A stretch of 54,109 nucleotides of DNA from Candidatus Uhrbacteria bacterium. Lineage in GTDB: Bacteria > Patescibacteriota > Patescibacteriia > UBA9934. Of the stretch, positions 5,601 to 23,600 are shown one piece after another (the first letter of the stretch is position 1; each line of letters starts with the position of its first letter). The position numbers and the translations under genes were made by a program. Under the pieces are notes generated by a model that had not been told where the DNA came from, did not search any database, and was given only the letters and a program-made list of their open reading frames with translations. Where the stretch lies: contig CALRHE010000001.1 in the NCBI GenBank assembly GCA_943359345.1, forward strand, positions 65,995 to 120,103, in the 5' to 3' direction.

Positions 5601-5629
5601 TTGCCAGTTTTTAAAATACTTGCTACTCT
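5601..5629 (+). promoter_or_regulatory. sigma70-type promoter for the ncRNA candidate and tRNA-Asp
   Basis: TTGCCA (5601-5606), 17-nt spacer, TACTCT (5624-5629). Confidence 0.65.
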
Positions 5630-5667: not shown

Positions 5668-5795
5668 TCCTGGATTAGATTTATTTGAGACTGGTTCTAG
5701 GCGCGGGACAGGCGAAACCGAACGTATGTAACCATACGGTGAGGTTGAAACAGGGACCCGCAACAACGAAACAGGCCAAATAAATTCAATCCAGC
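5668..5795 (+). ncRNA. candidate structured ncRNA of unknown family upstream of tRNA-Asp
   Basis: Closing stem ctggatt-agatttatttg / caaataaattc-aatccag; GCGGG/CCCGC stem; apical aacc-gaa-cgtatg-taac-catacg-gtga-ggtt; own promoter; no ORF. Confidence 0.55.
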
Positions 5796-5800
5796 TGTAA

Positions 5801-5877
5801 GGGGCGGTAGCTCAACTGGTTAGAGCGCTGCCCTGTCACGGCAGAGGTTGCGAGTTCGAGCCTCGTCCGCCCCGCCA
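5801..5877 (+). tRNA. tRNA-Asp(GTC), CCA encoded
   Basis: ggggcgg...ccgccccgcca cloverleaf; anticodon arm ctgcc-ctGTCac-ggcag. Confidence 0.95.
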
Positions 5878-5923: not shown

Positions 5924-6268
5924 ATGGAAAAATCTTTTCGCCTTTTTCTAATAATGTTTTTTGTAGGAATAATTCTTGCCACGGCAATGAATATGACAAC
6001 AGTGCGAGGTGAGGCGGTTGGCCCCGATGGATCATTACTCATTAAAGGTTTTCCTTTTGAAGCAGGAACTCGATTTTATGATTCCACTAACAGGAGTAAT
6101 CCCTTTTTTGTCGTAAGCTCCTACGGAGCCCTTGCGGGCAATACGATTGTTAGCTTTCTTCTCGTATTTGGAGCCGTTGGTAATTTTTACTTCTTCCGCG
6201 AAATCCGCAAAAAGTTGGACCCACATGCCTCAAAATCGCCCAAATGGAAGTCATCAAAAAGCCCTTGA
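5924..6268 (+). CDS. hypothetical membrane protein
   Basis: Two hydrophobic helices (LFLIMFFVGIILATAM; NTIVSFLLVFGAVGNFYFF). Confidence 0.5.
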   Translation: MEKSFRLFLIMFFVGIILATAMNMTTVRGEAVGPDGSLLIKGFPFEAGTRFYDSTNRSNPFFVVSSYGALAGNTIVSFLLVFGAVGNFYFFREIRKKLDPHASKSPKWKSSKSP

Positions 6269-7501
6269 AACACCCCTACAAATTTGGCACTGAACCCATG
6301 CGTCCCGCCACGATTCTATGAGAAGAGGACTTTCAGCAAAACTGGAAGTTTTCTTGTTATAATTTACAAATGCATTGGTTCCCACCGGCTGAAGATCAAG
6401 AATTTGGGTAGCGAGGATGTCGAAGGGCTTTTTGTAATGCCATTCAAGGTTTCCATCAAATAGCCGCAGGTTCCAACCGATGCTCCGGAGAATCTGCTTC
6501 TTCTCGGAGATATCCACATCTGGATCAGCGAATCGAGTAAAAGCATGGTGAGCTTTATCAAAGAACGTCTCAGCGTCTAGCAACCAATGACGGGTCGAGC
6601 TTCCTCCGTCTTTGATTTTCTGTTCGATATGGGCCTTCTCGTTTAAGAGTTCATTCTTTTTGGCAATATAGTCTTCCTTGGTAACAGTTTCGCTCAGGTG
6701 TGCATCCAATAGGTTAGCTAACTTTTTATCAAGCAAGCTTAAATCCCGACCCCACTGTTCAACATGGCTTCCCTGCTTTTCAAGTTGAGAAGCGAAGTGC
6801 AGTTTGATAAGTTTCTTACACAGTTCCCAAACTCGCTCATCGATATACACGGCTTGAAGCTTCTCGTGAACCTGAATGTCTATCTCTGCTGGCTTAAGGG
6901 GCTTTTGACCGCACGTTCCACGGCGCTTACTACATGTGTAATATTCATATTCTTTTCCGCTCAGCTTCTTCTTTCTCACCCCAACAATTGAACAACCGCA
7001 TTCAGCACATTGAATAAGCCCTCGATAAACAAAGTCATGTTTTACCAACATTGGATGCGATTTGCCAGACAGGTAACTTTGTATGTCAGAAAATTCCCGT
7101 GACGTAATGATAGGGTCATGAACTCCAGAAAAAAGTTCATGCTCATAACGCATCTGTCCGCTGTAGAAAGGATTTTTCAGTATCCGTTCGATCATGCTAA
7201 TTGAGTATTTTCCCTTAAAACGCGGGCTTTTTATACCTAAATGATTCATGTACTGTGCACTCTGTTTCAGCGTCCTAGGCTCAACCAAATACCAATCAAA
7301 GAAAGAACGTATAAGCGGCGCAATAAGGGGATCCTTTTCCACGCGTCTGAGCGATCTCCCCAAAGTTATCAACGATGTTTGCTTTTCATGATCATAAAAC
7401 TTGCCCGCAATTTTACCGTCGGCATCAATATTCAAGTAGCCTATCGGCGTCATTCCCACCCACTCGCCTTTAAGAAGTTTTGAGCGTACATCGCGTCGCA
7501 C
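6254..7501 (-). pseudogene. serine site-specific recombinase remnant lacking the N-terminal resolvase domain
   Basis: Begins at VRRDVRSKLLKGEWVGMTPIGYLN (recombinase domain) and retains the zinc ribbon (CAECGCSIVGVRKKKLSGKEYEYYTCSKRRGTCGQ) and coiled coil. An in-frame TAA lies shortly upstream and the neighbouring minus-strand ORF is not resolvase-like. Confidence 0.75.
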
Positions 7502-10848: not shown

Positions 10849-10871
10849 AGTGCTAGCATTATAGCAAGAGA

Positions 10872-10979
10872 TATTACAAAATTAGATATTAGCAGTCTTT
10901 AGAGAAGTAGATATTAGACACTGACGGAGCGGATCTAATGACTAATTACTAATAGCTGCTAATATCTAATTTTGTAATA
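10872..10979. repeat. MITE-like palindromic element, copy 1
   Basis: tattacaaaattagatattagcag ... ctgctaatatctaattttgtaata terminal inverted repeats; near-identical to copy 2. Confidence 0.85.
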
Positions 10980-10986
10980 ACTAAAG

Positions 10987-11448
10987 CTATTTCGTCTTCT
11001 TTAGGCTTTTCAATTCTTTCTCAAACCGGTTAACATCCTCAAATGAGAGGTACACCGATGCAAAACGGATATAAGCAACTTTATCAAAAGTCTTGAGATG
11101 TTTCATAACAATATCACCAACTTCAAGAGTGGTGATCTCTCCGCCGCGCACCTTTTGGATATCACGTTCAAGATTGTGCACGATGTTCTGAAGCTCAGTG
11201 TCAGTATATGGACGTTTTTCTAATGATCGTTTCAAACCAACCACTAGTTTTTCTCTAGAATAAGCCTCGCGCTTGCCGTTACGCTTAACCACCGTAACAT
11301 CTAAAAGTTCCATTTCTTCAACGGTTGAAAACCTGAACACACAGCGCTGGCGCTCACACTCTCGACGTCTACGGACCGACATGCCATCTGCACCCAAACG
11401 AGAGTCGACCACGCGTGTAGATTTGTAATTACATACCGGACATCTCAT
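10987..11448 (-). CDS. nrdR: transcriptional repressor NrdR
   Basis: MRCPVCNYKSTRVVDSRLGADGMSVRRRRECERQRCVFRFSTVEEMELLDVTVVKRNGKRE; ATP-cone region follows. Confidence 0.92.
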   Translation of the reverse strand: MRCPVCNYKSTRVVDSRLGADGMSVRRRRECERQRCVFRFSTVEEMELLDVTVVKRNGKREAYSREKLVVGLKRSLEKRPYTDTELQNIVHNLERDIQKVRGGEITTLEVGDIVMKHLKTFDKVAYIRFASVYLSFEDVNRFEKELKSLKKTK

Positions 11449-12821: not shown

Positions 12822-12904
12822 TAACTACACCTACCGAATACCTTTTGTGTACTACCCTATCTTATCGTGAAAAGCACCGTCAACACAAGGCGGGGATAAG
12901 CTTA

Positions 12905-13016
12905 GTTATTACAAAATTAGATATTAGCAGTAATTAGAGAAATAGATATTAGACCGTGACGGAGCGGATCTAATGACTAATTACTAATAGCTGCTAATAT
13001 CTAATTTTGTAATAAC
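12905..13016. repeat. MITE-like palindromic element, copy 2
   Basis: Perfect 26-bp IRs gttattacaaaattagatattagcag / ctgctaatatctaattttgtaataac; shared core gacggagcggatctaatgactaattactaatag. Confidence 0.88.
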
Positions 13017-13029
13017 TGATCCCTGCTAC

Positions 13030-20600: not shown

Positions 20601-23600
20601 TGACAAAAGTTCCAGACGGCAGGCTTGGCACTACACCGTTAAGAGTTTTGTAGTCAATGAGAGCGCTGCGAGCGTCTGTTAGGTCAGTCAACCGACGCGT
20701 ATCACGCCGCAAATATTCACTTGGCGAGGCGCATGCAACCTCTGTCTCCACACACATAGTCACGTTGTCGACGTTAACCGCAAAAGCAAAGTTATCAACT
20801 ATCTGGTTGTAAATGTTAATAGTGTCATCGCTAGCACCGGCGTTATATGACAAAGCATAAACATTTGCGTACAGGTCGCCAGTAGCCGTCTGGTTGGGAG
20901 CCACCACATATGTAGTCCGACCGTCCTGTGCAGCCAAATAACCGTCAACTTCAGTTTGCGATACTTCGCCAGTAAAACCTTGAGACTCGTACCAGGCTTC
21001 AGGACTCAAATAGTCTTGATTGCTGACAACACGAATACCAATCGCGTCCGAGCTACCGGAAACCTCAAACAAGTACTCTTTAATAACGTTAGCTGACTCT
21101 GTAATCAGCGGACGCACCACAATTACCTCAGGCAAATCATCCTGCGGGCCAGCTTCAGCTTGGTCGCGACAATACAGGGTTGAAAAATTCATCCAACCTG
21201 AACCTTCTTCTGCTCCCAGATCACCATCAGCAGTGTCGCTCCAGGGTAGTTGGCTAAAATCTCCCGGCCAAGGATTTTCACACAGGAACGCCAAGACCGG
21301 AGCCGAGCCTGTAACTGTGTCTGCAGTCGGTAAATTAGTGACATTGTCCTCCACGGCTGCGGTTGCGATAACTGCATCCTCGCCATTTTCTCCAACCGCT
21401 GTCACAGTCGCGATCTCAGACCCAACTTCTGATTGTTCAACTGCAAATATCTGCGTCCCCTGCTCAGTCTCCCAGTTAGTCCAAGTCCAGGAATACACGC
21501 CTTCAATCGAATCAATGGCCTGTGGAATACCACCAGAACGTGATTCGGCCGTGGCCACAAATGTGTGTTGCTCTTCACCAGTAGCAAAGACATATGGTGA
21601 CTCAGTGTAAGTATCGGTAACCGTAACTGTATCCAGAGAGCAAATCTCAGGCCCAACCGTAAAACCCTGGAAGGTTGAACCATTCACACCCACCCCAAGA
21701 TCAGTCGTCACGCCGCCAGTCAGGCCATCAGTAACGTCATCGTCACCCTCAACAACCAGCTCATAACTACCGTTAGCTACCAGCAAAGCGTCTAGATGCA
21801 TTTGTACCTTGTAAGTACCGTCACCAAGCGCTGTTTGACCAAAAGAACTAATCGGTGCCACGCAGTCACCTGGTGCAGCGTTAACCTGATTACCGGTCAT
21901 TAACCACACGAGCTTATTCCATAATTTCAAGATTGGATTGCGCGGCTCAAGGGCTAGGGTTGTGTGATCGTCAGGACAAATACCGTCAGCCGTGCTAGAC
22001 AAATCCAGACGGGCATACATGCGCGGCTTACCAAGCGTAGCCCCATTCTGAGCAGCCTCATATTCAAAACTACTGAGATCCATCTCCTCAGTAAAAATTG
22101 CATACACAGCCGCGTTTTGACAGACAGCTTCACCATTAGGGAACAAGGTCAAGGTTGGACGCTCCAGACAACAATTATTGGTGCCTACACCATAAGCTGC
22201 CGGATCAGTACAGTCTTGATCTGTTTCAGCCGCACATAATAAGGACAAGGTAGCAGCAGTAGTCAGACCAGATTCAGCCTCAGTGACTTCGATAGTGGCT
22301 ACAGCTTGCTGTGTGCTTGGATCAACTTCAAACACAGCCTCGTTAGACACTGAGGCCACCTGGATTGGGTCAAGCTTACCGTCACCTGTAACCCCCGATT
22401 CGCAAGTTGCTAATTCACCTGTACCCGTCAGACCATCACCGCAGAAAGATGGGGTGGCATACAAACTTGAGGAACCCTCAAGTAAACAATCAGCCGAACA
22501 ACCATCACCGTTTAAGCTATTGCCATCATCACAAGCCTCACCGTATTCAATCCCGTTAAGGCCACAGCTACTGCCGTAAGTCACGGATGATCCTTCCCAC
22601 AAACAACTAGCGGAACACCCGTCGCCATCAGTTACATTGCCATCTTCACACTCTTCGGTAGGTAGCTCAATTGAACCATCATTACATACGGCCCCGCCTA
22701 TTTCAGACAGTGTTGGCGAGCCCTCCCACAAACATTCATTTGAACACCCATCGCCCCGGGCGGCGTTACCATCGTCACACTCTTCTCCCGCCAAAGCTGT
22801 GGGGCTGGTAACGGCCACATCACTATTACCGCAACTAACCCCAATCGCAGCCGCTCCCTCAGATAAACACCCGGCCGAACAACCATCACCATCAAGCAAA
22901 TTACCGTCATCACAATCTTCACCTGTGCCGTCAGGGGCGCGGTTAACTAGATTGTCACCACAGCCTGGAGCCTCGCTGGCCTCACGCAAGCAGCTGGCCG
23001 AACAACCATCACCATTAGCTACATTGCCATCTTCACACTCCTCACTGTAATCAATAACTCCGTCACCACAAATCGCCGTTTGTGGCCAACTCCCAGCTGC
23101 GGTACATGAAGCCGAGCAACCAGCTGAGATATCACTTAAATTAGTGTCAACCAAACCAACTTCCCAGACAGCTACACGGGTGGCAGGATTATTATCCACG
23201 TCTTCATCAGCAATCGGATCGGTCCAACCCCAGTTATAGTTGAAACCGTTCAAACGTTGGCCGGAAACCGAACATGAGTCAGCCTCGCCATAAGCTTCAC
23301 CGGTAAAGGTTTGCTGCGCACCCACTGTAGCCACGGTCACCTCAGACGGCGACAAAGTCAGTCTATCAATAGCACACACTGAAGCGTCCTCGCGCACGCG
23401 GAAAGTCCAAGAGTAGTCGCCAGCGTAATTGGTACGCGTTAAAGCTACCCCACTCGTACTGGTAATCGCTCCATCAACAATCACCCTGTAAAACTTAAGC
23501 GGGATCAAATCCACAGAATTAAAAGCAAAACCGGTGCAGCTGGCATCAGCGTCATAGGTACAAGTGACCGTAGTGCCTGCCACGCTTTGTAAGTTCGAAC

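What the first reader, a model, noticed from the sequence alone, without database searches (positions are those of the whole stretch)
5668..5795. Candidate new structured RNA with its own promoter, fused upstream of tRNA-Asp
Seen: about 128 nt closed by ctggatt-agatttatttg / caaataaattc-aatccag, with a GCGGG/CCCGC stem, a perfect cgtatg-taac-catacg hairpin flanked by purine-rich asymmetric GAA/GTGA (k-turn-like) and repeated RACAGG/GAAAC motifs (ggacaggcgaaacc, gttgaaacaggg, aacgaaacaggc). It sits behind TTGCCA-N17-TACTCT and 5 nt before the tRNA. I do not recognise it as SRP RNA, RNase P, 6S or a familiar riboswitch.
Basis: partly seen in the sequence, partly recalled or inferred. Interest (0 to 1): 0.72.

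Follow-up and report, generated by a model that had tools for sequence, protein, structure and literature searches.

The report
Mobile hairpin element beside tRNA-Asp
The 125-base structure in front of this tRNA gene is one copy of a previously uncatalogued family of hairpin-folding repeats scattered, up to about 90 per genome, through ultrasmall Patescibacteria; the copies sit flush against the ends of tRNA and protein genes and keep their shape while their letters change.

Summary
The structure is real: window 5670-5794 folds 5.1 SD better than shuffles and matches nothing in Rfam. It is not a dedicated tRNA-Asp leader. The own genome holds 21 copies, most in front of other tRNAs or at ribosomal-protein genes and the 23S rRNA. 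Covariance models find the family in 58 of 73 genomes of the order (up to 91 copies per genome) and, as a lower bound, in 70/381 of the class and 41/380 of the phylum; none in 150 kb of E. coli. Support for the fold is very strong: 35 of 42 pairs have compensatory changes among 18 BLAST-found copies, and G.T pairs far outnumber A.C pairs, so one strand is the one that folds. Copies behave as mobile: species of one genus have filled, empty and internally deleted sites, and one genome has dispersed copies 95-98% identical. Orthologous copies still gain compensatory changes in place (23 observed; about 5.5 double changes of any kind expected). The 3' end abuts gene edges (62 versus 12 for the 5' end), tRNAs strongly (25 of 53). 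I read it as a new MITE/ERIC-like family of phylum depth that moves as a folded single strand. Mobiliser and host effect are unknown; Y1 transposase and reverse transcriptase are absent from the richest genome.

The parts
5601..5629 (+). promoter-like TTGCCA-N17-TACTCT upstream of the tRNA-Asp leader
   Evidence: read by eye; fails the consensus scan; following leader CCGCTCAGAGAGTGACATT conserved in G003
5670..5794 (+). hairpin element, one copy of the family (sense orientation, 3' end facing the tRNA)
   Evidence: fold z=-5.1; R1 108.9 bits, E=1.9e-22; R2 75.5 bits, E=1.6e-14, window 5671-5794
5670..5687 (+). P1 left arm (long outer stem; sequence differs in every copy)
5777..5794 (+). P1 right arm
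5689..5697 (+). P2/P3 left strand (GACTG, TTC), partners 5772-5776 and 5768-5770
   Evidence: covarying pairs TTC/GAA, TAC/GTA, TGC/GCA between copies
5703..5707 (+). P4 left strand GCGGG, partner CCCGC 5757-5761
5716..5719 (+). P5 left strand AACC, partner GGTT 5743-5746 (region of REP-like inserts in other copies)
5720..5742 (+). conserved apical module: GAA/GTGA tandem G.A loop and P6 CGTATG-TAAC-CATACG
   Evidence: most conserved columns of the family
5801..5877 (+). tRNA-Asp(GTC), 6 nt downstream of the element
   Evidence: ARAGORN, Rfam RF00005

Best explanation
The element is one copy of a phylum-wide, MITE-like family of about 125-bp imperfect palindromes in Patescibacteria (own lineage near Ca. 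Uhrbacteria). Shown: it is dispersed; copies are gained, lost and internally deleted between species of one genus; the fold (long outer stem, two short stems, P4, P5 and a conserved GAG-[RCGTAY-loop-RTACGY]-UGA module) is preserved by compensatory change, with one strand as the folded strand; the 3' end abuts gene edges, tRNAs above all. Inferred: the folded single strand (RNA or ssDNA of the sense strand) is what the mobilising machinery recognises, insertion has a polarity that puts the 3' end against the transcribed unit, and insertions survive where they fall between promoter and gene start or between gene end and terminator. At tRNA-Asp it would be co-transcribed as a 5' leader hairpin and cut off by RNase P. 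Any effect on the host transcript (stability, processing) is secondary and unproven.
For: Multi-copy: 21 copies in the own genome, 4-91 copies in 22 of 23 genomes of the family, 58/73 of the order. Mobility: orthologous flanks with and without the element between congeners G018 and G020, plus an internally deleted remnant between tRNA-Leu and tRNA-Val with about 99% identical flanks; tRNA-Asp upstream filled in G018/G020, an apparent remnant in G022, no element found in G016/G010; dispersed copies 95-98% identical in G020 and up to 98% in G031, flanks of the G020 group unrelated. Structure: covariation 0.528 vs 0.175 shuffled on the BLAST/MAFFT set; 0.729 vs 0.188 on 139 copies. Strand: G.T 284 vs A.C 52 and G.A 271 vs C.T 18, also in convergent copies, 96 vs 25; 39 vs 17 and 51 vs 7 on the BLAST-found set. 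Polarity: only the 3' end near a gene in 62 copies, only the 5' end in 12, p = 3e-9; 25 of 53 tRNA genes have a copy within 12 nt. Flush at a tmRNA 3' end and 9 nt from the 23S rRNA 3' end.
Against: No autonomous partner was found; Y1 transposase and RVT_1 are absent from G020, the genome with the youngest burst. No clean target-site duplication could be read from the empty sites. In-place compensatory change goes beyond what a dead insertion needs, so some copies may be functional for the host, or arms may be corrected against each other during replication. Only parts of each relative's genome were read, and gene calls outside the window are my own simple ones.
Confidence: 0.72

Rival explanations
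1. A cis-acting leader RNA (processing, antitermination or growth control) that cells recruit in front of tRNA and translation genes; copies spread by duplication because they are useful.
For: Sense copies sit 1-7 nt before tRNAs and often 2-11 nt before start codons; neighbours include S7, S2, S8, L27, L10, atpD, atpG, SmpB, named by eye; in-place compensatory evolution at tRNA-Asp, Tyr and Thr.
Against: About half of the copies lie beside convergent genes, often with the 3' end at the stop codon or CCA end, where the gene's transcript carries the reverse complement; presence at a given gene is not conserved.
Confidence: 0.15
2. An ordinary DNA-transposon MITE: only the dsDNA ends matter, and the internal fold is a by-product of near-palindromic sequence.
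For: TIR-like ends, with TA at both ends in the young G020 group; size like ERIC, RUP and NEMIS.
Against: Strand asymmetry of mismatches, conserved asymmetric internal loops, and compensatory change through the whole 42-pair stem, including copies with unrelated outer arms.
Confidence: 0.08
3. A set of independent small-RNA genes of about 125 nt, each with its own promoter.
For: The window copy has a plausible promoter; some copies are followed at once by a terminator.
Against: No fixed -10 box upstream of convergent copies; the left flank of many of these is a terminator, not a promoter.
Confidence: 0.05

Closest known systems
ERIC / IRU / RU-1 (enterobacterial repetitive intergenic consensus)
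   Same: About 127 bp, dispersed, forms a long stem-loop as RNA, orientation matters for its effect on mRNA (PMC2229807)
   Different: No model match in 150 kb of E. coli; here phylum-wide in Patescibacteria, outer arms unrelated between copies but covarying, 3' end flush with gene edges, strong tRNA association
Correia elements / NEMIS (Neisseria)
   Same: Short MITE-like elements co-transcribed as stem-loops, proposed RNase III targets (PMC2229807)
   Different: NEMIS have fixed terminal repeats and TA ends; here the outer stem varies between copies and the conserved part is internal
RUP (pneumococcus) and RPE (Rickettsia)
   Same: 105-146 bp palindromic mobile repeats, RUP in 108 copies (PMC2229807)
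   Different: RUP shares terminal repeats with an IS630 element; no partner found here. RPEs also insert in frame within genes; only 6 of 139 copies here overlap called coding sequence by more than 40 nt
REP/REPIN with RAYT (Y1 transposase)
   Same: Dispersed hairpins thought to move as folded single strands (own knowledge)
   Different: 125 nt rather than short REP hairpins; Y1 transposase not found in the own genome, G020, G011 or G003 despite many copies
Rfam tRNA-linked or r-protein leader RNAs
   Same: Position before tRNAs and r-protein genes
   Different: No Rfam family matches; one structure for many unrelated genes

Membership tests
Rfam 15 families | score above a family's gathering threshold | tested here: not met
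   no hit for 5670-5794, even at E<=10
MITE (generic) | dispersed near-identical short copies with unrelated flanks | tested here: met
   G020 and G031 copies up to 98% identical; flanks of the G020 group unrelated
MITE (generic) | filled and empty orthologous sites | tested here: met
   G018 vs G020
MITE (generic) | terminal inverted repeats | tested here: met
   outer arms complementary, e.g. TAGGACTTTCTCATTT / AAATGAGGAAGTCCTA
MITE (generic) | target-site duplication | tested here: inconclusive
   no clear duplication in aligned empty sites; TA at both ends of the young G020 group only
MITE (generic) | autonomous parent with the same ends | tested here: inconclusive
   solo ends in the G020 stretches were listed but no transposase-length segment between them was seen; only about a third of that genome was read
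ERIC | sequence/structure homology to enterobacterial ERIC | tested here: inconclusive
   0 model hits in 150 kb of E. coli K-12; ERIC copies themselves were not aligned
REP/RAYT | Y1 transposase in carrier genomes | tested here: not met
   not found in G000, G003, G011, G020
retroelement | reverse transcriptase in carrier genomes | tested here: not met
   RVT_1 not found in G020, G011, G003, G001, G004
cis-regulatory leader RNA | always sense and upstream of its gene | tested here: not met
   70 of 138 copies have a convergent right-hand gene
cis-regulatory leader RNA | conserved at the same gene across relatives | tested here: not met
   4 of 21 tRNA-Asp-like loci

The most novel reading that the evidence does not exclude
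A selfish structured RNA (or ssDNA) of phylum age that moves through its own folded sense strand and is inserted with fixed polarity at the boundaries of highly transcribed units (tRNA, tmRNA, rRNA, r-protein genes) by a machinery not yet known, neither a Y1 transposase nor a canonical reverse transcriptase.
Probability: 0.25. Interest if true: 0.85.

Novelty: new variant of a known kind. Interest (0 to 1): 0.62.

Why it matters
Patescibacteria have very small genomes, yet some carry up to about 90 copies of this element. Nothing in Rfam or in the papers I could search describes it. It offers a clean case for asking how a folded nucleic acid can be both mobile and under structural selection for the age of a phylum, why it hugs tRNA ends, and what it does to tRNA and mRNA processing. 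The covariance model makes these questions testable in any Patescibacteria genome or transcriptome.

Tried and rejected
Rfam at gathering and at E<=10: nothing. Phage and plasmid collections: no similar DNA. Exact core pattern in viral contigs: none. Y1 transposase and reverse transcriptase as mobilisers: not tied to copy number. A -10 box at a fixed distance as a universal feature: seen by eye in some sense copies, not supported by counts. TIGR-Tas stem-loop arrays, known from Patescibacteria: those are tandem arrays with variable spacers in the loops, whereas here single copies have conserved loops and variable stems (comparison from reading only). Intrinsic-terminator reading of convergent copies: no T-run after the reverse complement in most (by eye). 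Papers on structured RNAs or short repeats in Patescibacteria: none found.

Full report
WHAT IS THERE. Window 5670-5794 is a 125-nt imperfect hairpin, 6 nt upstream of tRNA-Asp (5801-5877). It folds at -43.9 kcal/mol, z = -5.1 against dinucleotide shuffles. Rfam 15 has no match at the gathering threshold or at E<=10.

IT IS A FAMILY. A BLASTN search of the own genome and relatives gave weaker second hits that were not the tRNA. Read out and folded, most of these places share one architecture: a long outer stem whose sequence differs between copies, a one-base bulge or none, two short stems, P4, P5, and a highly conserved apical module GAG-RCGTAY-loop-RTACGY-UGA. Eighteen of them without inserts, aligned by MAFFT and not by any structure model, give 83.1% paired cells (shuffled 62.1), 35 of 42 pairs with changes on both sides, and a covariation score of 0.528 (shuffled 0.175; slid versions at most 0.227). 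The covariance model R1 finds 21 copies in the own genome, and 22 of 23 genomes of the family have copies, 4 to 91 each. In the order it is 58 of 73. R2, built from 139 copies, finds 70 of 381 genomes drawn from the class and 41 of 380 from the phylum at E<=1e-5, with only nine candidates scored per genome, so these are lower bounds. Distant members keep the same loops. E. coli, 150 kb with rRNA and tRNA clusters: none at E<=1.

WHICH STRAND FOLDS. In the pair columns of 139 copies G.T outnumbers A.C 284 to 52, and G.A outnumbers C.T 271 to 18. That alignment was fitted by a model that accepts G.U, but the structure-blind set shows the same direction (39 to 17; 51 to 7). A double-stranded cruciform would give equal counts. 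The asymmetry also holds in copies next to convergent genes (96 to 25). So the sense strand, as RNA or ssDNA, is the form under constraint.

WHERE COPIES SIT. In the own genome they lie 5' of tRNA-Asp, Arg (cct, gcg, tct), Gln, Thr, Ile, Phe, Glu and Leu and of the S7, L27, L10 and RmuC-like genes, or in antisense right after the 3' end of tRNA-Gly (two), tRNA-Arg and 23S rRNA (the 23S gene ends 9 nt before the copy in the 23S-5S spacer). In 139 copies from seven other genomes, 133 are intergenic, and the 3' end alone is near a gene edge in 62 and the 5' end alone in 12 (p = 3e-9). Half have a sense gene on the right and half a convergent one, whose stop codon or CCA end the element often touches (-5 to +2 nt). 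tRNAs are over-represented: 25 of 53 tRNA genes have a copy within 12 nt. One copy ends exactly at the tmRNA 3' end. Many convergent copies lie between a stop codon and a terminator; sense copies lie between promoter and gene start (by reading). Some of these stretches were chosen because they held hits, so the tRNA and gene figures describe hit-bearing regions.

MOBILITY. Between the congeners G018 and G020 there are occupied sites with clean empty counterparts and one internally deleted copy between tRNA-Leu and tRNA-Val whose flanks are about 99% identical. In front of tRNA-Asp, G018 and G020 carry a copy, G022 seems to keep only remnants of the arms, and G016 and G010 show none. G020 holds several dispersed copies 1-4 mismatches from one consensus with unrelated flanks; G031 has copies up to 98% identical. 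Y1 transposase and RVT_1 do not track copy number and neither was found in G020.

CONSTRAINT IN PLACE. In seven orthologous pairs of copies, 23 base pairs changed on both sides and stayed paired, against about 5.5 double changes of any kind expected from the per-site rate; 19 pairs gained or lost pairing and 14 changed on one side only. This includes the copy at tmRNA, which is convergent. Two readings remain: selection on the folded strand in place, or correction of one arm from the other during replication. The conserved asymmetric loops argue against wholesale arm correction but not against short tracts.

INTERPRETATION. The test it proposed, conservation upstream of tRNA-Asp, fails (4 of 21 loci), while covariation is overwhelming. 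Both fit a mobile hairpin family better than a tRNA leader. What it works like: ERIC, NEMIS and RUP elements, which are 100-160 bp palindromic mobile repeats whose transcripts form long stem-loops (PMC2229807). Whether it is a member of one of those: not shown, and Y1/REP membership fails. New are the depth of the family across a phylum, the covarying but unrelated outer arms, the strand asymmetry, and the polarity towards gene edges and tRNAs. The function for the host is open; RNase P would remove the leader at tRNAs (established knowledge), so a copy there need not harm the tRNA.

LIMITS.

Noticed in passing
window 10861-10990 and 12904-13017: A second, unrelated palindromic repeat of about 114 nt (34-nt arms), with roughly 20 further places in the own genome.
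   Followed up: partly
window 6254-7501, minus strand: Serine-recombinase-like ORF (resolvase/zinc-ribbon look by eye, no family search done) shortly downstream of tRNA-Asp.
   Followed up: no
L099, L103, L105, L107 (own genome): Several copies carry the same REP-like hairpin insert (CCCTTCGACAAGCTCAGGGC...GAAGGCTGAG) beside the apical module, as if one mobile hairpin had inserted into another.
   Followed up: partly
own genome C5:5446-5970 (L091, L099, L100): Three copies within 530 bp: one on each side of tRNA-Arg(cct), both with the 3' end towards the tRNA, and a third upstream of an RmuC-like gene.
   Followed up: no
L161:14608 and other sense copies: Start codons directly follow the element or promoter with no room for a Shine-Dalgarno sequence, suggesting leaderless mRNAs in this lineage.
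   Followed up: no
window 22478-23043: Five imperfect 62-nt direct repeats spaced 117-135 nt, probably a repeat protein.
   Followed up: no
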